A stretch of DNA of 20,780 bases from a virus, in the IMG/VR virus record IMGVR_UViG_3300031622_000568, positions 1-20,780 of that record. The stretch is one strand, 5' to 3'. The notes under the pieces are model-generated. The model worked only from the letters and a program-made list of their open reading frames with translations. It made no database searches and was not told where the DNA came from. Position 1 is the first letter of the stretch. Each line of letters begins with the position of its first letter. Positions 2-20,561 of the stretch are shown here, in pieces. Made by a program: the position numbers and the translations under genes.

Positions 2-175
2 ATTCATGCATCTGCAGAGAGGTATGTTGATTTACTTTGTGACATGGGAACAAAAGAAGAAACGTTCAACGATGTATTAGGATCTGACTCAGATCTTGAT
101 GATGCAATATGTTATTACTTAGATCTAGATAAAATGGACGATGATGACGATGACGATATGTTTGGGGAAGAGTAA
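2..175 (+). CDS. C-terminal end of an acidic protein of unknown function (5' truncated)
   Basis: An open frame enters from the left edge and stops at TAA 173-175, giving 57 visible residues. The visible part is mostly helix-forming and ends in a strongly acidic tail: seven consecutive aspartates followed by Met-Phe-Gly-Glu-Glu. Acidic tails ending in a hydrophobic pair occur on T4-family proteins that bind the sliding clamp, such as the late transcription factors gp55 and gp33. That is only an analogy here, because no diagnostic domain is visible. The stop lies 5 bases before the uvsY start, so the two genes are probably co-transcribed. I do not recognise the family. Confidence 0.6.
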   Translation: MHASAERYVDLLCDMGTKEETFNDVLGSDSDLDDAICYYLDLDKMDDDDDDDMFGEE

Positions 176-6076: not shown

Positions 6077-6905
6077 TTTATGGACAGATTATGGTGCACT
6101 TAATAGTAGACCTATCTTTGATGCTTTTGAACACAGTCTTATATCTGCTGGGTGGACTGTTTCTCATAATGATGCTAGTGCCGATGTTAATGTTATTTGG
6201 AGTGTGTTGTTTAATGGACGAATGGCTGGAAACAAGAAAGTCTGGAAACAAACCAAACCAACCATAGTATTAGAAGTCGGTGGCATTAAAAGAGGTACAA
6301 CATGGAAGGTAGGACTAAATGGGATTAATAGAGATGCTTACTTTGGCCCCAATAATAACAATGACACTCGCCATCGTCTATTGGGCCTATCATTAAAACC
6401 TTGGCGTACTAGCGGAGAGTTTATTCTTATAGCAGGACAACACGATAAGAGTCTGCAATGGCAAGGTATGCCAAGCATGAGCCAATGGCTGATGAACACT
6501 ATTGATACTATTCGAACATATACCAACCGTCCTATACTATTCCGTCCTCATCCTCGTTGTCCATTACCAAATATTGAAAACGAATTTAAAAATGTTTATA
6601 GACAACAACCAGTACAACTACCAAACAGTTACGATGATTTTGACATAGGCTTTGACAACGTACACGCTACTATAAGCTACTCTAGTAACCCAGGCATTCA
6701 TAGTGTACTTGATGGCGTTCCTGCGTTTGTAGGTACTAGCTCGTTAGCGTACGACGTTGCTAACGACATAAACTCTATGAACAATATAGAAGCACCCCTA
6801 ATGCCTGATAGAACACAATGGCTTAACGACTATGCACACACCGAATATACAGTTGAAGAAATATCTCAAGGAATTCCACTTAAACACTTGACATTCAAGC
6901 TATAA
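6066..6905 (+). CDS. Capsular-polysaccharide-biosynthesis-like protein (paralogue 3 of 3)
   Basis: This 279-aa product is the third copy of the domain seen at 3500-4315 and 4302-5231. Shared landmarks in the same order are a strand FILIAGQ, a helix with TIRTYTNRPILFRPHPR (R160-P163), ATISYSSNPGIHSVLDGVPAFV (SYSSN near 204-208), and a closing helix YTVEEISQGIPLKHL. The opening residues MKVSLWTDYG and the segment IVLEVGGIKRGTTW suggest an N-terminal Rossmann-like half. It overlaps the preceding stop by 11 bases and is the last gene of the glycan island. The promoter for the next operon lies in its last codons. The function is probably glycan synthesis; the specific reaction is unknown. Confidence 0.6.
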   Translation: MKVSLWTDYGALNSRPIFDAFEHSLISAGWTVSHNDASADVNVIWSVLFNGRMAGNKKVWKQTKPTIVLEVGGIKRGTTWKVGLNGINRDAYFGPNNNNDTRHRLLGLSLKPWRTSGEFILIAGQHDKSLQWQGMPSMSQWLMNTIDTIRTYTNRPILFRPHPRCPLPNIENEFKNVYRQQPVQLPNSYDDFDIGFDNVHATISYSSNPGIHSVLDGVPAFVGTSSLAYDVANDINSMNNIEAPLMPDRTQWLNDYAHTEYTVEEISQGIPLKHLTFKL

Positions 6906-6916
6906 TATAGTATAAT
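6888..6916 (+). promoter_or_regulatory. Perfect sigma70-type promoter, leaderless geometry
   Basis: TTGACA (6888-6893), a 17-base spacer and TATAAT (6911-6916) match the consensus at every position. The next ATG (6923) is 7 bases after the last -10 base, where transcription would be expected to begin, and no Shine-Dalgarno lies between. It probably drives the operon from 6923 through uvsW early in infection using host RNA polymerase. Confidence 0.8.
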
Positions 6917-6922
6917 AGTAAT

Positions 6923-8140
6923 ATGATTAAACCTAGTATAGAAGATTGTCTTGAACTGTTAGTTGGATTACAAGAGGACCCAACTAAGAAGTTTAAAGTT
7001 ATTTCGGAAGATTATTCCGTATTAACTAGTATTGGTCGACAAGTCTTTAAGGGTGTTGGATTAACTGATAGACAATATGAATTAGTTAAAACAAAGCTAT
7101 TAGCATACCAAGATATGTTTGATCATAATTTAACAGAATCTTTTACTACTTTACGAATTCCTCTAAGAGAACTTAATAGAGAAAAGACTATTAAAATAGT
7201 TTCTATGCACGACGATGAAACTATTTTATACATTGCTGTTAAGTTCATATTTAATAAAAAATTATTGACTAGTATAGAACGAGTAAAACAAGCAGTTGAC
7301 GGACACTGCCATACTTATGATAGCATTGAGAAAGTACATTATTTTCTATTTAATGAACACAATGCATTTGCTGTTGTAAAGAATTTTAAAAATAATAATT
7401 TTGAAATACAGCCAGAATTATTAACATATTATAATAAAGTAGAGATCATGAATAATAATGAGGAAGACCACATACCGGGAATATATTCTTTTAAGTTAAA
7501 AAACTTAACTGATAAAGCTATCAACTTTATGGTTTCGTCAATTGGTAAACCTTCAAAAGAAAACTTAGCAATATACAACGACCGTAAAGAACAATTAGGA
7601 CTATATCATTTTGAACAAGAAGAACTAGAAAATAGTCTAAATGCATTAACAGTACTAAGTAAAAAAATTGTAACTAGAAAATTATACACTGTATTAATTT
7701 CTCCTGAAAAATATCCTATTGAACGAGTAATAGAAAGTTTATTAGAATTAAATAGATTTCCATTGCTAGTAATATTACCAAACGATAATTCATTAGATGG
7801 GTTAATTGCAGTACATAGCGGATTAACTAATATATTCTTTAATGAAGATACAAGTGTACTATTTAGAGTTGATAATGATACTGGTCGAAATTTTAATGAA
7901 TATATTAAAACTAATAAATTAAACAATCCGATTGACAGCAACACAAAAGTAGTGTATATTAATACTAATAAGTTTCCTAAACCTTTACTTAAAAGCAATT
8001 GGATACCTAGTGCAGTATTAACGATAGGCAGTCAACGAATGAACACTAAAGTAAACGATTATATATCTCCAATGGATTTGGTTATTCATTATGACACTGA
8101 TATAACTCCGTTTACTCGAATTAAAGCTGATAAACTATAA
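6923..8140 (+). CDS. Unknown protein beside UvsW, possibly HARP-like
   Basis: I do not firmly recognise this 405-aa protein. Residues about 20-70 carry a FKVISEDYSVLTSIGRQVF stretch followed by LTDRQYELVKTKLLAYQDMF, a helical module I associate with phage DNA-metabolism proteins. Residues about 87-175 alternate strands and helices (KFIFNKKLL, VHYFLFN, FAVVKNFKNNNFEIQPELL) in a way that recalls the HARP domain of annealing helicases. The C-terminal half (YTVLISPEKYPIERVIESL, FPLLVILPND, KVVYINTNKFPKPLL) looks like an alpha/beta fold but has no Walker A motif. The gene follows a perfect promoter and is 1 base from uvsW, suggesting a partner role in branch migration or replication. That role is inference. 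Confidence 0.6.
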   Translation: MIKPSIEDCLELLVGLQEDPTKKFKVISEDYSVLTSIGRQVFKGVGLTDRQYELVKTKLLAYQDMFDHNLTESFTTLRIPLRELNREKTIKIVSMHDDETILYIAVKFIFNKKLLTSIERVKQAVDGHCHTYDSIEKVHYFLFNEHNAFAVVKNFKNNNFEIQPELLTYYNKVEIMNNNEEDHIPGIYSFKLKNLTDKAINFMVSSIGKPSKENLAIYNDRKEQLGLYHFEQEELENSLNALTVLSKKIVTRKLYTVLISPEKYPIERVIESLLELNRFPLLVILPNDNSLDGLIAVHSGLTNIFFNEDTSVLFRVDNDTGRNFNEYIKTNKLNNPIDSNTKVVYINTNKFPKPLLKSNWIPSAVLTIGSQRMNTKVNDYISPMDLVIHYDTDITPFTRIKADKL

Positions 8141-8141
8141 A

Positions 8142-9599
8142 ATGGCAACATGTAAACTAATTATAGAAGACGAAGTTAATATAAAACTTGAAGGACTAGA
8201 CGTAGATGTACGAAGAGCAATTGCAAATAAGCTCAAGTTTGAAGTGCCGTATGCAAAGTATATGCCACAGTATAAGCTAGGTCGTTGGGACGGCAAAGTT
8301 GCATTCTTTGGTATAGGTGGAACAGGATATGTTAATCATTTAGATGTAGTGCAAGAAGTATTACGAAACAATCACGTAGAAATAACTTCAATTGATGATA
8401 GACGAGTACCGCTTGATTTAAAGTTTGATACTATCACCGAAGATTTTTGGGGAGATACAGTTTGGCCAGAAGGACATCCTGTAGCAGGAGAACCTATTCG
8501 TCTTCGAGACTATCAAGTTGAAGTAGTTAACAATTTTCTAACAAATCCTCAAGCATTACAAGAAGTTGCTACTGGTGCAGGTAAAACTATTATTACAGCT
8601 ACATTATCTAAACTTACAGAAAAATACGGGCGTAGTCTTGTAGTAGTTCCAAACAAGAGCTTAGTAACACAAACTGAAGAAGACTATATTAACTGCGGTC
8701 TTGACGTAGGAGTTTACTTTGGTGATAGGAAGATGTTAGGATGCACACATACTATTTGCACTTGGCAGAGCTTAAACATTCTTGATAAAAAGAATAAAGA
8801 CGGCACGGCAGTATTAAGTCTTGCAGAGTTTCTAGAAGGTGTAAGCACAATTATTATTGACGAAGTACATCAAGCAAAAGCAGAAGTACTTAAGAATTTG
8901 TTAACACGTAACTTACGTAATGCGCCAATTCGTTGGGGGCTTACTGGTACTGTGCCTAAAGAAAAGTTTGAGTTTGAAAGTATACATGCAAGCCTAGGTC
9001 CAGTTATTGGAAACATAACTGCTAAAGAGTTACAAGATAAAGGTGTACTTTCAAACTGTCATGTAAATGTTGTACAGTTAATAGACACAGTAGCACATAG
9101 TAATTACCAAGAAGAATTAAAATATCTTGTTACTAATACAAACAGGATTCAATATATAGGCAAACTATTAAACACAATTTCACAATCAGGCAATACACTT
9201 ATCTTAGTTGACAGAATCTCTGCAGGAGAACTACTTCAGGAAATTATTCCTAATAGTGTTTTCGTTAAAGGAGATATGAAACTAACTGATAGAAAAGAAA
9301 CTTACGATGAGATTAAAGAAGGCACTAATAAAGTTATTATCGCAACATATGGAGTTGCGTCAGTAGGAATTAATATTCCTCGTATTTTTAACTTGGTGCT
9401 TATTGAACCAGGCAAGAGCTTTGTTCGAGTTATTCAAAGCATAGGTAGAGGTGTACGTAAAGCAAAAGATAAAGACTTTGTTCAAATCTGGGATCTTACA
9501 TCAACTTGTAAATTTGCAAAACGACATTTAACTCAACGTAAGAAATTTTATAAAGATGCTCAATACCCATTTAGTATTGAAAAAGTAGATTGGAATTAA
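8142..9599 (+). CDS. uvsW: UvsW-like ATP-dependent DNA helicase
   Basis: The 485-aa protein is close to T4 UvsW (503 aa), a superfamily 2 helicase that remodels branched DNA, drives branch migration and unwinds R-loops during recombination-dependent replication. The N-terminal part (residues 1 to about 115) holds the family pattern KYMPQYKLGRWDGKVAFF. The helicase core then shows RDYQ (Q motif), Walker A ATGAGKT (143-149), motif II DEVH (240-243), motif III LTGT, a second RecA-like domain with TLILVDRI, and motif VI QSIGRGVR (432-439). All catalytic motifs are present. It starts 1 base after the upstream stop and shares its operon. Confidence 0.92.
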   Translation: MATCKLIIEDEVNIKLEGLDVDVRRAIANKLKFEVPYAKYMPQYKLGRWDGKVAFFGIGGTGYVNHLDVVQEVLRNNHVEITSIDDRRVPLDLKFDTITEDFWGDTVWPEGHPVAGEPIRLRDYQVEVVNNFLTNPQALQEVATGAGKTIITATLSKLTEKYGRSLVVVPNKSLVTQTEEDYINCGLDVGVYFGDRKMLGCTHTICTWQSLNILDKKNKDGTAVLSLAEFLEGVSTIIIDEVHQAKAEVLKNLLTRNLRNAPIRWGLTGTVPKEKFEFESIHASLGPVIGNITAKELQDKGVLSNCHVNVVQLIDTVAHSNYQEELKYLVTNTNRIQYIGKLLNTISQSGNTLILVDRISAGELLQEIIPNSVFVKGDMKLTDRKETYDEIKEGTNKVIIATYGVASVGINIPRIFNLVLIEPGKSFVRVIQSIGRGVRKAKDKDFVQIWDLTSTCKFAKRHLTQRKKFYKDAQYPFSIEKVDWN

Positions 9600-11125: not shown

Positions 11126-11393
11126 ACTTATACCTGGACAACCTTTGATATATGAGCGAGCCAACAGTGTTGTGTTCGCTCATTATCGAGACCCGCCACA
11201 TAACAAAATTCCAAGATGGATAGTTGGCGGCACCCCCGAAGGTGTATCGAAAGAACAAGGAAATCTATTTTCGTATAGTGAATGGGAACATATGATGGAA
11301 TTAGCTATTACTAATAAGGCATTTAAAATACAACTTGACAGACTTGTATTAATGTATTATACTATAAAGGATACAGAAAAGGAAATTAAATGA
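11112..11393 (+). CDS. Small unknown protein
   Basis: The 93-aa product begins at GTG 11112, inside the end of the transporter gene, and ends overlapping the next ATG by 4 bases. It has an aromatic and proline-rich N-terminal part (GQPLIYERANSVVFAHYRDPP and PRWIVGGTPEG) and a helical C-terminal part (WEHMMELAITNKAFKIQLDRLVLMYYTIKD). I recall similar short proteins in T4-like marine phages but know no function. No membrane segment, signal or catalytic motif is visible. The last codons contain the promoter for the next gene. Confidence 0.7.
   Translation: MSKGKLIPGQPLIYERANSVVFAHYRDPPHNKIPRWIVGGTPEGVSKEQGNLFSYSEWEHMMELAITNKAFKIQLDRLVLMYYTIKDTEKEIK
11335..11363 (+). promoter_or_regulatory. Sigma70-type promoter before the kdsB-like gene
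   Basis: TTGACA (11335-11340), a 17-base spacer and TATACT (11358-11363, five of six matches) lie in the end of the upstream gene. The expected transcript start near 11370 leaves a leader of about 20 bases with AAAAGG before ATG 11390, a conventional arrangement unlike the leaderless promoters elsewhere in the window. Confidence 0.6.
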
Positions 11394-12522: not shown

Positions 12523-13198
12523 TAAACCATTTGTATGTGAATATTGTAAGACAGGCTACATGAAGGAAAAGACGCTTGCAGTACACATGTGTGAACAAAA
12601 ACGTAGAGCATTACAGAAGAATGAAAAACGTGTACAGTTAGGATTAATTACATTTAATAAATTTTATCAAATAAGCATGGGTGCAAAAACTGAAAAGTCT
12701 TATGAAGATTTTTGCAAAAGTCAATACTATAATGCATTTGTAAAGTTTGGTAGTTTTATATCAAACGTCAAACCATTATACCCAGAAAAGTATATTGAGT
12801 ACGTAGTAAAAAGCGGAGTAAAATTAGACCATTGGTGCAAAGAAGAATTGTATGAAAAATATGCTTTGGAGTTAATTAGAAAAGAAGCAATGCAAACGGC
12901 AGTAGAACGTTCCATTATAAATATGATGGAATGGGCAGACGAAAACAATAGCCAATGGAATCATTATTTTAATTACGTAAGTTTAAACAGAGCAATTTGG
13001 CATATTAAAGATGGCAAAATAAGTCCGTGGATTATATTAAATTGTAAAAGCGGAAAAGAAATGCTAGGCAAATTTAACGATGAGCAACTTGGAATGGTTT
13101 ATAATATTATGGATCCAAGTCATTGGGCAATAAGGTTTAGTCGACAAAAGTCAGACGTAGAAACAGTTAAAGAAGTTGTAAAGGAAAGTAAACTATGA
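12509..13198 (+). CDS. Unknown protein with an N-terminal C2HC zinc finger
   Basis: The 229-aa protein starts at ATG 12509, overlapping the upstream stop by 14 bases. An earlier in-frame ATG at 12434 lies deep in the upstream gene and is less likely. Residues 10-28 form a zinc finger of pattern Cys-x2-Cys-x12-His-x-Cys (CEYCKTGYMKEKTLAVHMC), followed at once by a basic patch (EQKRRALQKNEKR). The rest is helical with several tryptophans and a conserved-looking SLNRAIWHIKDGKISPWIIL and GKFNDEQLGMVYNIMDPSHW. I recall homologues in T4-like marine phages without a known role. The zinc finger and basic stretch suggest binding to DNA, RNA or polymerase, near clamp-loader and polymerase-like genes. 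Confidence 0.72.
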   Translation: MLSSNKPFVCEYCKTGYMKEKTLAVHMCEQKRRALQKNEKRVQLGLITFNKFYQISMGAKTEKSYEDFCKSQYYNAFVKFGSFISNVKPLYPEKYIEYVVKSGVKLDHWCKEELYEKYALELIRKEAMQTAVERSIINMMEWADENNSQWNHYFNYVSLNRAIWHIKDGKISPWIILNCKSGKEMLGKFNDEQLGMVYNIMDPSHWAIRFSRQKSDVETVKEVVKESKL

Positions 13199-15988: not shown

Positions 15989-15996
15989 GATAAATA
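15989..15996 (+). promoter_or_regulatory. Possible T4-type late promoter
   Basis: GATAAATA at 15989-15996 differs at one position from the T4 late consensus TATAAATA. With the usual spacing the transcript would begin at about the ATG at 16002, giving a leaderless message for a virion protein. No ribosome site is seen. Placement in a 30-base divergent gap supports it, but AT-richness makes chance matches common. Confidence 0.4.
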
Positions 15997-16001
15997 TATA
16001 T

Positions 16002-16793
16002 ATGACGCAGTTAATACCTAGATATTTAGCAACTAACAGAACCACGATCATAGCCAATGTGGCTGGATTCATCACGGAGTATAAACCAGTGTATCAAAGA
16101 AACATAAAAATATATAAAAATATAGATAACATATTACAATTTAGGGTTTTAAACCCAGATCAAAAACCATTATCAATTAGTGGACTTACTCCTAAGTTTG
16201 TAGCATTTGATGAAAATAAAAAACTTATTATAGAACACGACGGAGTTGCAATAGTAGGTGATGACAGTGCTGCAACAAGAGGATTATTTTCTGTAACTAT
16301 TGCTGAGAATGATTTGCTTGGAGTTGATACACAGTACCTAAGTTACAACATAGTTTTACAAGATGCAAGTAATATTAACACGTTAACTTATTCTGATACT
16401 GACTTTGGAAACTCTGGAGTTATGTTTGTTGACAGTGGAGCAAGACCAGGTCCAAGCGACTCGTATAGTTTTACGCAGTTCCAACAAGAAAATGTACAAA
16501 GCACAATATTCTTTAGCGAATCAAAAACTGCTGAACCTGCTATTAACGGCAACGATGCATTACACACTGCTTCAATTTATACCAGTTCGTATATTGGAGA
16601 TGTTATTGCACAAGCTACATTAGATAGCTCAGTAACAGAATCAACTGCTTGGGGTGATGTAGCAACTGTTACATTTACTGGTGCAGAAACTACACCTATC
16701 CCTGTAAACTTTAATGGTGTATTCAACCATTTAAGATTTAAAACAACAGCTAACCCTGCAGATAAAATAACCAAAATACTTGTCCGAAACTGA
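16002..16793 (+). CDS. Virion structural protein, BppU-like N-terminus
   Basis: The 263-aa protein has the look of a phage baseplate or fibre-associated component. Residues about 35-125 (IKIYKNIDNILQFRVLNPDQ, then a FVAFDENKKL strand and FSVTIAENDLL) resemble the N-terminal immunoglobulin-like domain of BppU/DUF2479 baseplate proteins. The C-terminal part is Thr/Ser-rich beta structure (WGDVATVTFTGAETTPIPV, LRFKTTANPADKITKILVRN), as in marine T4-like virion proteins. The N-terminus (MTQLIPRYLATNRTTIIANVAG) has no signal peptide. It stands alone between replication genes and is preceded by a late-type box, consistent with late expression. The exact virion position is unknown. Confidence 0.68.
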   Translation: MTQLIPRYLATNRTTIIANVAGFITEYKPVYQRNIKIYKNIDNILQFRVLNPDQKPLSISGLTPKFVAFDENKKLIIEHDGVAIVGDDSAATRGLFSVTIAENDLLGVDTQYLSYNIVLQDASNINTLTYSDTDFGNSGVMFVDSGARPGPSDSYSFTQFQQENVQSTIFFSESKTAEPAINGNDALHTASIYTSSYIGDVIAQATLDSSVTESTAWGDVATVTFTGAETTPIPVNFNGVFNHLRFKTTANPADKITKILVRN

Positions 16794-16822
16794 TTGACTT
16801 TTAACTAGTAAGGTGCTATAAT
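16794..16822 (+). promoter_or_regulatory. Sigma70-type promoter of the primase gene, leaderless geometry
   Basis: TTGACT (16794-16799), a 17-base spacer and TATAAT (16817-16822) lie directly before the primase ATG at 16829, with only 6 bases between the -10 box and the ATG. No ribosome site fits downstream of the expected transcript start. The AAGG at 16810-16813 would lie upstream of it. Confidence 0.75.
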
Positions 16823-16828
16823 ATTACT

Positions 16829-17809
16829 ATGAGTATAGTAATAGAAACAGTTCTGACATACCTTCCGCAAAAGCGTAAAACAACACCTAGTGGTTGGGTT
16901 TCTTTCAATGCTCCCTGTTGCCAGCACAACGGCCAGTCGCTAGACAATAGACAACGTGGCGGCGTTATCCAAGAAGGTGAACATATAAGTTATCATTGTT
17001 TTAACTGTGGGTTTAAGGCCAGCTGGCAACCTGGTCGCAATATATCATTTAAACTTCGTAGTCTATTGCAATGGCTACATGCACCAGATGATGTAATTAA
17101 TAAACTTGCATTACAGGTTATGCAGGAAAACGAAGGTATACATGTACAACAGAAACTAGTTGAATTACCTACATTTGAAACAGTCCCCTTACCTGATAAT
17201 GCTATTAAGTTAACAGACATTACTGACTTCAACAAACATAACTTAGCTATACTTGAATATATGTCAACACGTAACTTACATGTTGACGACACAGAATACT
17301 ATTGGTCTTCTAGCCTTGGTTATCGAGATCGTCTTATAGTTCCATTTTATTATGACAAACGTATTGTAGGATGGACAGCTAGGACTATACAAGCAGATAG
17401 CAAGTACAAATATATGTCTGAACAGCAACCTGGCTATGTGTTTAACTTAGATGAACAACGCCCACAAAAGATATTTGTCGTTGTATGCGAAGGCCCTATT
17501 GATGCGTTACATGTAGACGGTGTTGCATTACTCGGAAGTGAAATCAAAGATCAACAGGCTATGTTGATTAATCGGTTAAGTAAAGATGTAATAGTTGTTC
17601 CGGATAGAGACGAAGCCGGAAAGAAATTAATCGAACAAGCAATTGAGCTTGGTTGGGGAGTAAGTTTACCAGACTGGGAAGTAGGTATAAATGATATTGG
17701 GGACGCAGTTAATAAACACGGAAGGTTATACGCATTGCATAGAATAGTAAGTGCAGCTGAAACTAGTCCTTTGAAAATTAGACTTAAGGAGAAAAAATGG
17801 TTCAATTAA
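16829..17809 (+). CDS. 61: DNA primase (gp61-like)
   Basis: The 326-aa product is close to T4 gp61 (342 aa). Gp61 makes short RNA primers for lagging-strand synthesis and works in a complex with gp41 helicase. The N-terminal zinc-binding region has C30/C31-x-H33 and, after a loop, HCFNCGFK (C57, C60), a CxxH...CxxC-type finger. The C-terminal half holds the TOPRIM fold: VVVCEGPIDALHVDG with catalytic Glu221, and VVPDRDEAGKKL with Asp259 and Asp261. All key residues are present. It has its own promoter and is likely leaderless. Its 3' end overlaps the next small gene by 13 bases. Confidence 0.92.
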   Translation: MSIVIETVLTYLPQKRKTTPSGWVSFNAPCCQHNGQSLDNRQRGGVIQEGEHISYHCFNCGFKASWQPGRNISFKLRSLLQWLHAPDDVINKLALQVMQENEGIHVQQKLVELPTFETVPLPDNAIKLTDITDFNKHNLAILEYMSTRNLHVDDTEYYWSSSLGYRDRLIVPFYYDKRIVGWTARTIQADSKYKYMSEQQPGYVFNLDEQRPQKIFVVVCEGPIDALHVDGVALLGSEIKDQQAMLINRLSKDVIVVPDRDEAGKKLIEQAIELGWGVSLPDWEVGINDIGDAVNKHGRLYALHRIVSAAETSPLKIRLKEKKWFN

Positions 17810-17922
17810 TAAGAAAAATAATAAATTTCTTTACCTGGCCGTATGTTACAATACGTGATCATATTCGATTTAAAAAGAAAATGAAAAAACTTAGAGAAGC
17901 AGATCCCTTTATATACAAATAA
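17797..17922 (+). CDS. 41-aa basic small protein
   Basis: This short gene starts inside the end of the primase gene, with a strong ribosome site (AAGGAG at 17786-17791, 5 bases upstream of ATG 17797). The product is basic and aromatic: a hydrophobic N-terminal stretch (LIRKIINFFTWPY), a basic middle (RFKKKMKKLRE) and the ending ADPFIYK. I recall short proteins with a similar DPFIYK ending in other T4-like marine phages, with no known role. It may be amphipathic and membrane- or nucleic-acid-associated. It is too small for default gene callers. Confidence 0.68.
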   Translation: MVQLIRKIINFFTWPYVTIRDHIRFKKKMKKLREADPFIYK

Positions 17923-17956
17923 TGGAAAAAAATTTAATTAATAATATGGTAATGAT

Positions 17957-18952
17957 ATGATACATTGGGGTATGGTTGGTAATAGTCACGACGCTAGTTT
18001 AGCAGTTTTTGAAACAAGGACTACTGGGCTTAGTAACTTTCCTAAAACAAAACTGTTACATGCAAGCCTAGCTAAAGACTACAGTCAAGTTCAAAACGAT
18101 CCTAACTTTAATTGGACACAGATCGAATCAGCTAGACAAACTTTTGGACCACCTTTAAAGATACAATGGTACGAACGTCCGGTGCTAAAGACATTACGAC
18201 AATGGCGGGCAGGACAGGGTTGGTTGTATAACGAGAACAATATTAAAAAGTATCTTATGCAATGGGATATTACTGCACCAATTAAATATACCCAACACCA
18301 TTTAAGTCATGCGGCCTATGCGTATTACACACAACCACATGACGACTGTGCTGTAATTGTGATAGACAGTATTGGAGAGTTTGAAACCCTAACTATATGG
18401 CATGGAAAGAACAATAAGCTAAAGAAGATACATAGTCAGGGCTACCCACATAGCTTAGGACTTTTCTATAGTGCGATGACACAGCGTATGGGATTAGTTC
18501 CACAATGTGATGAACACCTAGTTACTCAGATGTCTAAGAAAGGTAACTATAAAAGGCTTAGTAAAAAGATACTAACTGAAATCATTAGGCCACCTAATAA
18601 AGGTAACCCTACTATTAAGATGAGAGAAAATTTACATAGAGGGTGCATGTGGTGGAGACCAGAGCTACAAACAGAACAAGATATGTGTGACATTGCAGCC
18701 GCCACCCAACGTATATTTGAACTTAGCCTCAAACACTTATCTGATTGGGCTAAAGAAAAAACACAATCTCCACATCTAGCATTAGCAGGTGGTGGCGCAC
18801 TTAATCAACAAGCAGTAAAAAAGATTAAGCGTAAATGGAAGAACGTGTGGGTACCTACGAACCCAGGCGATCCTGGGTCGTGTATTGGAGCAGTACTAGC
18901 ACAAACAAAAACCAAGATAATACTTGACAACCAATGGTATAAGGCAGTATAA
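17957..18952 (+). CDS. Carbamoyltransferase-like protein, Kae1-like domain only
   Basis: The 331-aa protein matches the N-terminal half of NodU/CmcH/TobZ-type carbamoyltransferases, which move a carbamoyl group from carbamoyl phosphate, via carbamoyl-AMP, to a sugar or other hydroxyl. Visible features are a strand MIHWGMVGNSHDASLAVFE, the metal-binding HHLSHAAYAYY (H114, H118), VIVIDSIGEFET, GLFYSAMTQRMG, and the ASKHA-type LALAGGGALN (GGG at 278-280) followed by VPTNPGDPGSCIGA. Full family members are about 550-600 aa and carry a C-terminal YrdC-like domain. That domain is absent here, and the next gene begins 6 bases later. It may use a separate activating enzyme or do a different reaction. 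The ribosome site is weak. Confidence 0.82.
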   Translation: MIHWGMVGNSHDASLAVFETRTTGLSNFPKTKLLHASLAKDYSQVQNDPNFNWTQIESARQTFGPPLKIQWYERPVLKTLRQWRAGQGWLYNENNIKKYLMQWDITAPIKYTQHHLSHAAYAYYTQPHDDCAVIVIDSIGEFETLTIWHGKNNKLKKIHSQGYPHSLGLFYSAMTQRMGLVPQCDEHLVTQMSKKGNYKRLSKKILTEIIRPPNKGNPTIKMRENLHRGCMWWRPELQTEQDMCDIAAATQRIFELSLKHLSDWAKEKTQSPHLALAGGGALNQQAVKKIKRKWKNVWVPTNPGDPGSCIGAVLAQTKTKIILDNQWYKAV

Positions 18953-18953
18953 T
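18924..18953 (+). promoter_or_regulatory. Sigma70-type promoter before the 58-aa gene and gp41, leaderless geometry
   Basis: TTGACA (18924-18929), an 18-base spacer and TATAAT (18948-18953), all in the last codons of the carbamoyltransferase gene, precede ATG 18959 by only 5 bases. The region just before the -10 box (TAAGGCAG) resembles that of the primase promoter (TAAGGTGC). Confidence 0.7.
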
Positions 18954-18958
18954 AAAGT

Positions 18959-19135
18959 ATGGGAATAAATGATAAAATATCTGAAGAAGATAAAAAAATG
19001 ATGGACGAGTGGCTTAAGAAAAACAAAGTCACTGTAGGAAAAACAAAACCTATGCCGTCTGAACTTGGTATTAGTAACATCACTTGGAACAATAAGTTAA
19101 CGAAGGCAGAGAAAAAAATAAAAGATGGCAACTAG
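18959..19135 (+). CDS. 58-aa small protein upstream of the gp41 helicase
   Basis: The frame begins at ATG 18959, just after a strong promoter, and its last 11 bases overlap the helicase start. The product is highly charged and lysine-rich: a helical N-terminal half (ISEEDKKMMDEWLKKNKVTV) and a tail PMPSELGISNITWNNKLTKAEKKIKDGN. It has no hydrophobic span. Being first in the helicase transcript, it may couple translation into gp41 or act with it. I know no function. It is below the size many gene finders report, but position and overlap support it. Confidence 0.65.
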   Translation: MGINDKISEEDKKMMDEWLKKNKVTVGKTKPMPSELGISNITWNNKLTKAEKKIKDGN

Positions 19136-20561
19136 ACAGAACACAGACTATGGACATGATATACAAAAAGTATATCTAGAAATGATGCTGACTGATGCTG
19201 AGAGCTTCGTTCGGTGTCAGGCTGTGTTTGACCCAATGGCATTTGATAGACGCTTACAGGAACCAGCAAAGTTCCTAACTAATTATGTAAGTGATCATAA
19301 TGCACTTCCTACGTTTGATATGATTAATGCAGCAACAAATGCAAACTTAGCAGCACCCGACGCACCGTTGCAAGAAAATCATTATGATTGGTTGCTATTA
19401 GAGTTTGAAACGTTTAGTAGACACAAAGCATTAGAAGCAGCAATACTTAAAAGTGCAGACTTACTTGAAAGTGGCGACTATGGACCAGTAGAAGATTTAG
19501 TTAAGAAGGCTGTCCAAATTGGATTACAAAAAGACTTGGGTACAAACTACTTTGATGATCCTAGGGCTAGACTAGAAGCTATTAAAGATAACAACGGACA
19601 AGTAAGCACAGGCTGGGCTGCATTAGATAAGAAACTGTTTGGTGGATTTAACAGAGGTGAGCTTAATATATTTGCAGGTGGATCAGGTGCAGGTAAGAGT
19701 TTGTTCTTAGCTAACCTAGGTGTAAACTTTGCACAGAAAGGTATGAACGTACTATACCTAACATTAGAACTTAGTGAGAACTTAGTTAGTATGCGTGTTG
19801 ACAGTATGCTAACAGAGATTAGCACACGTGATATCTTTAAGAACATTGATGAAGTAGAATTAAAAGTTAAGATGATAGGCAAGAAGAGTGGGGCGTTTCA
19901 GGTTAAGTATATGCCTTCAGGTAAAACGCCTAATGACATACGTAGTTACATTAAAGAATACGAAATTAAAACAGGACGTAAGATAGACGTACTACTAATT
20001 GATTATCTAGATTTGCTTATGCCGAATGGTGCTAAAGTAAGTGCAGAGAACTTGTACATCAAAGACAAGTACGTATCAGAAGAGTTACGTAATCTAGCAA
20101 TGGAATTACAAACAGTATTTGTTACAGCAGCACAGTTGAACCGTGGTGCAGTAGAAGAAATTGAATTTGATCACTCGCATATATCAGGTGGACTGAGTAA
20201 GATACAAACTGCTGATAACGTGTTTGGTATCTTTACAAGTAGAGCAATGCGTGAACGCGGACGCTATCAACTACAGCTAATGAAGACACGTAGTTCAAGT
20301 GGAGTTGGAAATAAGATTGATCTAGGATTTGATGTTGACAGCTTACGCATATTTGATCTAGATGAAGACGATGAAGGCGACAACTATCAAACAAGTTCAG
20401 GTAGCTCAACTATTATGGACACATTAAAACGAAGTAGTAGTAATACTCCAGCAGAGTCTAGAGAAGATCCAACAGAAGGTTCTAGTATTGGCAAGGTAAG
20501 AGCAGAAACTGATAGTACAAAACTTAGACAATTTTTAAACAACTTGCCTGGCGATGAATAA
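19125..20561 (+). CDS. 41: Replicative DNA helicase (gp41-like, DnaB family)
   Basis: The 478-aa protein equals T4 gp41 (475 aa) in size. Gp41 is the hexameric 5'-3' helicase at the replication fork and works with gp61 primase. The N-terminal part (to about residue 150) is the helical collar. The RecA-type core then shows Walker A GGSGAGKS (185-192), a following VLYLTLELSE, Walker B DVLLIDYLDLL (Asp293 as the motif Asp), a FVTAAQLNR sensor segment, and LQLMKTRSSSG near the arginine-finger/H4 region. The C-terminal tail is acidic and serine-rich. All catalytic motifs are present. It begins 11 bases inside the 58-aa gene and shares its promoter. Confidence 0.95.
   Translation: MATRQNTDYGHDIQKVYLEMMLTDAESFVRCQAVFDPMAFDRRLQEPAKFLTNYVSDHNALPTFDMINAATNANLAAPDAPLQENHYDWLLLEFETFSRHKALEAAILKSADLLESGDYGPVEDLVKKAVQIGLQKDLGTNYFDDPRARLEAIKDNNGQVSTGWAALDKKLFGGFNRGELNIFAGGSGAGKSLFLANLGVNFAQKGMNVLYLTLELSENLVSMRVDSMLTEISTRDIFKNIDEVELKVKMIGKKSGAFQVKYMPSGKTPNDIRSYIKEYEIKTGRKIDVLLIDYLDLLMPNGAKVSAENLYIKDKYVSEELRNLAMELQTVFVTAAQLNRGAVEEIEFDHSHISGGLSKIQTADNVFGIFTSRAMRERGRYQLQLMKTRSSSGVGNKIDLGFDVDSLRIFDLDEDDEGDNYQTSSGSSTIMDTLKRSSSNTPAESREDPTEGSSIGKVRAETDSTKLRQFLNNLPGDE

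What the first reader, a model, noticed from the sequence alone, without database searches (positions are those of the whole stretch)
16794..18961. Same leaderless geometry repeated before primase and before the gp41 unit
TTGACT-17-TATAAT sits 6 bases before the primase ATG (16829), and TTGACA-18-TATAAT sits 5 bases before ATG 18959. Both share a TAAGG stretch just upstream of the -10 box. With the promoter at 6888 this makes three replication/recombination units with one design, while the kdsB-like promoter (11335) has a normal leader and ribosome site. This suggests a dedicated class of early replication promoters, perhaps giving initiation by intact 70S ribosomes under phage takeover.
Basis: partly seen in the sequence, partly recalled or inferred. 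Interest (0 to 1): 0.7.

Follow-up and report, generated by a model that had tools for sequence, protein, structure and literature searches.

The report
Leaderless primase promoters in marine phages
A family of large marine T4-type phages places its host-type promoters so that transcription should begin exactly at the start codon of the DNA primase and some other genes, so these messages would carry no ribosome-binding leader, and this layout is conserved with near-perfect spacing across more than a hundred relatives.

Summary
Related viral loci hold 284 distinct TTGACW-15..19-TATAAT promoters; 192 have ATG 5-7 nt after TATAAT (6 nt in 135), against about 2 expected in shuffles and 5% where the -35 box is missing. 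For primase, 110 of 124 distinct orthologs have this layout and none has a Shine-Dalgarno site; a pyrimidine precedes the ATG, as expected if transcription starts on its A. The 405-aa gene before UvsW shares it (39 of 57), gp41 partly (38 of 98); other window genes 0-8%. Cultured PA5oct, MIJ3, SCTP-2, Stenotrophomonas CM1/RAS14 and Melnitz match at primase. The interpretation needs changing. It is not a dedicated replication class: SSB, clamp loader, NrdB and the late sigma factor have the same strong promoters with ordinary leaders; some non-replication genes are leaderless; late-type ATAAATA motifs also sit 5 nt before ATG. Distances are bimodal (5-7 nt, or about 18 nt and more). The shared TAAGG is not conserved. 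Best reading: near-consensus sigma70 promoters giving leaderless mRNAs, nearly fixed at primase, interchangeable with leaders elsewhere. No RNA data exist here; start sites and 70S initiation are inferred.

The parts
16794..16822 (+). sigma70-type promoter of primase: TTGACT, 17 nt, TATAAT (with TG before the -10)
   Evidence: layout in 110 of 124 distinct primase orthologs
16829..17809 (+). T4 gp61-like DNA primase, ATG 6 nt after TATAAT, no SD
   Evidence: phrog_47, E 1.5e-38; no in-frame ATG/GTG/TTG between the ATG and the upstream stop
6888..6916 (+). sigma70-type promoter TTGACA, 17 nt, TATAAT before the 405-aa gene
   Evidence: layout in 39 of 57 orthologs
6923..8140 (+). 405-aa protein, C-terminal half like an XPB/UvsW RecA-like domain; ATG 6 nt after TATAAT
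   Evidence: AlphaFold pLDDT 91.8; VIA-align Z 10-12; no family
8142..9599 (+). UvsW-like helicase, second cistron of this unit
   Evidence: phrog_16, E 7e-78
18924..18953 (+). sigma70-type promoter TTGACA, 18 nt, TATAAT inside the 3' end of the carbamoyltransferase gene
18959..19135 (+). 58-aa ORF inserted between promoter and gp41; ATG 5 nt after TATAAT
19125..20561 (+). gp41/DnaB-like helicase; overlaps orf58; in many relatives directly leaderless
   Evidence: phrog_19, E 3e-71; 38 of 98 orthologs leaderless
17957..18952 (+). Nol-like carbamoyltransferase gene whose end carries the gp41-unit promoter
   Evidence: phrog_1601, E 7e-29; PF02543
15989..15996 (+). late-type motif GATAAATA, 5 nt before ATG 16002 of the structural-type gene upstream of primase
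   Evidence: conserved at 4-5 nt in orthologs
11335..11363 (+). leadered comparison promoter TTGACA-17-TATACT before the kdsB-like gene (ATG 11390)

Best explanation
The three sites are near-consensus host-sigma70 promoters whose transcription start coincides with the A of the start codon, so they produce leaderless mRNAs (5'-AUG, no Shine-Dalgarno) for primase, the 405-aa helicase-like protein and the first cistron of the gp41 unit. Selection holds the -10-to-ATG distance at 6 nt (5-7). Leaderless starts are one of two coexisting start modes in this phage group, used by some early genes and by a late-type ATAAATA promoter class, and virtually fixed at primase; the alternative is a leader of about 18-60 nt, usually with SD. 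Shown: the sequence layout, its conservation, SD absence, bimodal distances, pyrimidine before the ATG. Inferred: transcription start on the A, and translation by recognition of a 5'-terminal AUG (70S, or 30S with initiator tRNA). Plausible use, inferred only: the whole control region fits into about 35 nt overlapping or abutting the upstream stop codon, and a start codon without SD should be read well only on mRNAs that begin there, not on read-through mRNA from the upstream structural gene.
For: 192 of 284 strong promoters have ATG at 5-7 nt, 135 at exactly 6; shuffles give 1.8; TATAAT lacking a -35 gives 5.2%. Gene-specific: primase 88%, 405-aa gene 68%, gp41 39%, other window genes 0-8%, with SD 0% at primase. 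Most of the 14 unscored primases still show a degenerate -35/-10 at the same place. Base before ATG is a pyrimidine in 99% (primase) and 96% (405-aa gene) of spacing-6 representatives, 23 of 25 at spacing 5. Distances are bimodal: in six large contigs 27 promoters at 5-7 nt, 112 at 12 or more, 4 in between. In the gp41 slot at least six unrelated small ORFs have their ATG 5-8 nt from TATAAT. PA5oct, MIJ3, SCTP-2, CM1/RAS14 and Melnitz primases score 10-12 of 12 with the layout, 1 of 71 other genes does; an exonuclease shared by PA5oct and a marine contig (41% identity) is leaderless in both. Start regions are less structured than internal windows.
Against: No transcript 5' ends or ribosome profiling for any of these phages were at hand. 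The orthologs are related, so counts are not independent. AT-rich, weakly structured starts could be translated through ribosomal protein S1 on longer transcripts too. Enterobacterial, Vibrio and rhizobial relatives keep leaders with SD-like sites at primase, so the layout is not required for primase function. PA5oct would use GTG, which is poor on leaderless mRNA in E. coli (review PMC9031893).
Confidence: 0.85

Rival explanations
1. By-product of genome compaction: promoters were squeezed against start codons because intergenic space is minimal, and the exact distance has no function; translation depends on unstructured AT-rich starts.
For: The -35 abuts or overlaps the upstream stop in 23 of 27 leaderless cases; starts are AT-rich and weakly structured.
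Against: Compaction alone does not give a peak at 6 nt with almost nothing at 0-4 or 8-12 nt, nor exclusion of SD at primase (0 of 124), nor a conserved pyrimidine before the ATG. Leadered promoters abut upstream stops almost as often (73 of 112).
Confidence: 0.1
2. Real transcripts of these genes start further upstream (read-through from the structural gene or another promoter), and the TATAAT boxes are weak or unused; translation is SD-independent on leadered mRNA.
For: Co-directional genes lie directly upstream; no strong terminator before primase was found.
Against: Near-consensus -35 and -10 boxes are conserved down to about 41-57% protein identity while the spacer between them drifts; a promoter that is not used would not be kept.
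Confidence: 0.05
3. One reading: a dedicated early replication promoter class translated by intact 70S ribosomes after phage takeover.
For: Primase, gp41 and the 405-aa/UvsW unit do share the layout; leaderless mRNAs are known to bind 70S ribosomes (PMC9031893); two of 15 related contigs encode bS21.
Against: Most other replication genes use leaders with the same promoter type, non-replication genes and late-type promoters are leaderless too; leadered and leaderless genes coexist.
Confidence: 0.1

Closest known systems
Leaderless genes of bacteria with a -10 element just before the start codon (e.g. Deinococcus-Thermus, PMC12340547; survey PMC3160421)
   Same: -10 box adjacent to the ORF, no SD, start codon at the expected transcription start
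   Different: Here with a full -35 box, in T4-type phages that also use SD leaders, and nearly fixed at one replication gene across many relatives
Phage lambda cI (named as a leaderless mRNA in review PMC9031893)
   Same: A phage gene with its AUG at the 5' end of the transcript
   Different: A single repressor gene of a temperate phage; here several replication genes of T4-type phages with near-consensus promoters
T4 early (sigma70) and late (gp55-type, TATAAATA) promoters (general knowledge)
   Same: Near-consensus -35/-10, and late motifs; relatives encode a gp55-like late sigma factor
   Different: The layouts here put the AUG at the expected +1; T4 promoters usually have leaders
Giant phage AR9 transcripts (PMC5312081)
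   Same: Jumbo phage; the paper remarks that phage transcripts are often leaderless
   Different: AR9 uses its own RNA polymerases and its leaders are 26-491 nt

Membership tests
Leaderless (5'-AUG) genes | -10 element placed so that +1 falls on the start codon (5-7 nt) | tested here: met
   192 of 284 promoters; primase 110 of 124 orthologs
Leaderless (5'-AUG) genes | No Shine-Dalgarno site before the start | tested here: met
   0 of 124 primases have an SD core
Leaderless (5'-AUG) genes | AUG start codon | tested here: met
   124 of 124 marine primases ATG; PA5oct and MIJ3 have GTG
Leaderless (5'-AUG) genes | Transcript 5' end at the start codon | not testable with these tools
   No RNA data; only the pyrimidine-A initiator context supports it
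Leaderless (5'-AUG) genes | Initiation by 70S ribosomes | not testable with these tools
   Needs translation assays
sigma70-type early promoter | TTGACA-like and TATAAT boxes with a 16-18 nt spacer | tested here: met
T4 middle (MotA) promoter | MotA box near -30 in place of a -35 consensus | tested here: not met
   The conserved element at this place is TTGAC[AT]
Dedicated early replication promoter class | Most replication genes, and only these, have the layout | tested here: not met
   SSB, clamp loader, gp47-like, NrdB leadered; non-replication genes leaderless
T4-type late promoter (site at 15989) | TATAAATA-like octamer, and a gp55-like sigma factor in the phage group | tested here: met
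   26 gene families with NATAAATA 5 nt before ATG, controls 2-3; phrog_12791 in contig G004

The most novel reading that the evidence does not exclude
Leaderless starts act as a 5'-end-dependent translation gate: primase and its partners are translated only from mRNAs that begin at their own promoter and not from late read-through mRNAs of the structural genes among which they lie, so the choice of transcription start also decides translation, in both early and late classes of these phages.
Probability: 0.25. Interest if true: 0.75.

Novelty: new variant of a known kind. Interest (0 to 1): 0.6.

Why it matters
Leaderless mRNAs in lytic-type phages are known mainly as single cases. A layout nearly fixed at one replication gene over more than a hundred marine relatives and several cultured T4-type phages, beside SD-led genes with the same promoters, gives a natural system for asking when and why leaderless translation is preferred. 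It also affects annotation: start callers that rely on SD sites can misplace such starts (SCTP-2 primase is annotated 96 nt too short), and cultured phages (PA5oct, Melnitz) allow a direct test.

Tried and rejected
TAAGG upstream of the -10 as a shared element: rejected (4 of 124, 9 of 98). TATAAT-to-ATG alone as a signal in the window: not significant. MotA-type middle promoter: no box. Dedicated replication class: rejected by leadered SSB, clamp loader, gp47-like and NrdB genes. Pattern hits in PA5oct at 12831 and 216211 and in SCTP-2 at 119904 and 292429 open no real ORF. Family or function for the 405-aa protein by Pfam, PHROGs and a PDB sequence profile: none; a weak Foldseek list was resolved by VIA-align to one helicase-like domain. 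No paper on leaderless replication genes of T4-type or jumbo phages was found in the library; the library is partial. One control motif (NTAAATAA) also peaked, at spacing 4, because it is the late motif shifted by one base. A test of whether leaderless genes sit behind upstream genes more tightly than leadered ones was not decisive.

Full report
Observation. The window is a 20,780-base virus record.

Genes. 16829 is a T4 gp61-like primase (phrog_47), 19125 a gp41/DnaB-like helicase, 8142 a UvsW-like helicase. The 405-aa protein at 6923 has no Pfam or PHROG match; its confident AlphaFold model (pLDDT 91.8) has a C-terminal half like one RecA-like domain of XPB/UvsW helicases (T4 UvsW 1rif Z 10.0, best Z 11.8). 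'Replication/recombination' is therefore plausible but unproven for it. The ATG at 18959 opens a 58-aa ORF, and gp41 follows with an overlapping start. Closest cultured relatives by gp41 and primase are jumbo phages: PA5oct, Atu_ph07, Phosso, SCTP-2, Vibrio 2.275.O.

Conservation. Scans with primase, gp41 and UvsW gave 234 loci. They hold 284 distinct TTGACW-15..19-TATAAT sites; ATG follows at 5, 6 or 7 nt in 25, 135 and 32 cases, at 8 nt in one, and the next broad maximum lies at about 19-36 nt. Shuffled sequence gives 1.8 such cases per set; TATAAT without a -35 has ATG at 5-7 nt in 5.2%. As a control over genes, orthologs of 27 window genes were collected: the layout is found in 88% of primases, 68% of 405-aa genes, 39% of gp41 and both orf58 copies, but in 0-8% of all other genes; SD cores are found in 0% of primases. 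A second classification gives 110 of 124, 39 of 57 and 38 of 98, and most unscored primases still show a degenerate copy in the same place. In spacing-6 representatives the base before the ATG is T or C in 99% (primase) and 96% (405-aa gene), the context RNA polymerase prefers for starting on the A (the preference is general knowledge); at spacing 5 it is 23 of 25.

A natural experiment. At the gp41 promoter, which lies inside the 3' end of the carbamoyltransferase gene, different viruses have gp41 itself or one of at least six unrelated small ORFs (58, about 50, 78, 94, 208 and 34 aa) as first cistron with its ATG 5-8 nt after TATAAT; a few others have a longer distance. On trees, leaderless and leadered states change at least 6 times at gp41 and 4 times at the 405-aa gene, whereas leadered primases are almost unknown in this group.

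Not a replication class. In six large related contigs, promoters of at least 11 of 12 matches fall into two groups: 27 leaderless and 112 with leaders, only 4 in between. Leadered genes with the same promoter type include the clamp loader, SSB, gp47-like nuclease, an exonuclease, dNMP kinase, NrdB and a gp55-like late sigma factor (names from PHROGs). Leaderless genes include an endonuclease (phrog_8420) and an exonuclease (phrog_298) but also an oxygenase-like and an HldE-like kinase gene (named from sequence only). The structural-type gene just before the primase has a T4-type late motif, GATAAATA, 5 nt before its ATG, and this is conserved. Across the loci, NATAAATA stands 5 nt before the ATG of 26 gene families, against 1-2 families at each distance from 8 to 14 nt and 2-3 for control motifs. 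If the late motif lies at -13 to -6 as in T4 (general knowledge), these late starts are leaderless too.

Cultured phages. The primase of PA5oct and MIJ3 has TTGACA-17-TATAAT-6-GTG; SCTP-2 TTGACA-16-TAGCAT-6-ATG, with the annotated start 96 nt downstream; Stenotrophomonas CM1/RAS14 TTGACG-18-TACAAT-7-ATG; Melnitz TTGACA-17-TATATT-7-ATG; Xanthomonas X1 scores 9. Enterobacterial, Vibrio and rhizobial relatives have SD-like leaders. Of 71 other annotated genes in eight of these phages one reaches the same score. The exonuclease EST35_0240 of PA5oct, annotated exactly at a leaderless ATG between two structural genes, is 41% identical to the leaderless exonuclease of contig G001; the G002 ortholog is not leaderless.

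Mechanism. Best-supported: sigma70 RNA polymerase starts on the A of the start codon and the 5'-AUG mRNA is translated without SD. The review PMC9031893 describes 70S binding to AUG at or near the 5' end, with AUG preferred in E. coli. Layout, conservation and bimodality are shown; transcript ends and ribosome behaviour are inferred. A translation gate that ignores read-through mRNA would explain why SD is excluded at primase, but relatives with leaders show that it is not obligatory. bS21 genes in two of fifteen contigs are a loose hint at ribosome changes, no more.

Verdict.

Noticed in passing
window 15989-16002 and orthologs in the loci; contigs G001-G009: Late-type NATAAATA motifs stand exactly 5 nt before the ATG of 26 gene families, so the late class also has leaderless geometry.
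   Followed up: partly
G001:C1:332212-332364 (-) and G002:C1:23004-23159 (-): Two of the large related phage contigs encode ribosomal protein bS21, which might bear on start-codon selection.
   Followed up: no
L135, L138, L141, L148 (minus strand, first ~5 kb of that strand); G001:C1:11663-23296: Tandem arrays of similar strong promoters before small genes, with leaders containing GGAGCGA or GGGCA; in G001 many spacers are 16 nt and partly palindromic.
   Followed up: no
L035:8099 and L085:6964: A BtuB-like outer-membrane receptor gene (about 578 aa, judged from sequence only) sits in a phage contig behind a leaderless-type promoter.
   Followed up: no
L239:3501 (SCTP-2 record position 160185): The SCTP-2 primase is annotated 96 nt downstream of the conserved ATG; SD-based gene calling probably missed the leaderless start.
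   Followed up: yes
window 7932-7960: TTGACA-17-TATATT inside the 405-aa gene recurs in relatives; it lies in conserved codons (NTKVVYI), so it is probably coding constraint rather than a promoter.
   Followed up: partly
window 6923-8140: The 405-aa protein looks like a half or degenerate XPB/UvsW-type helicase next to a complete UvsW-like gene; no family describes it.
   Followed up: partly
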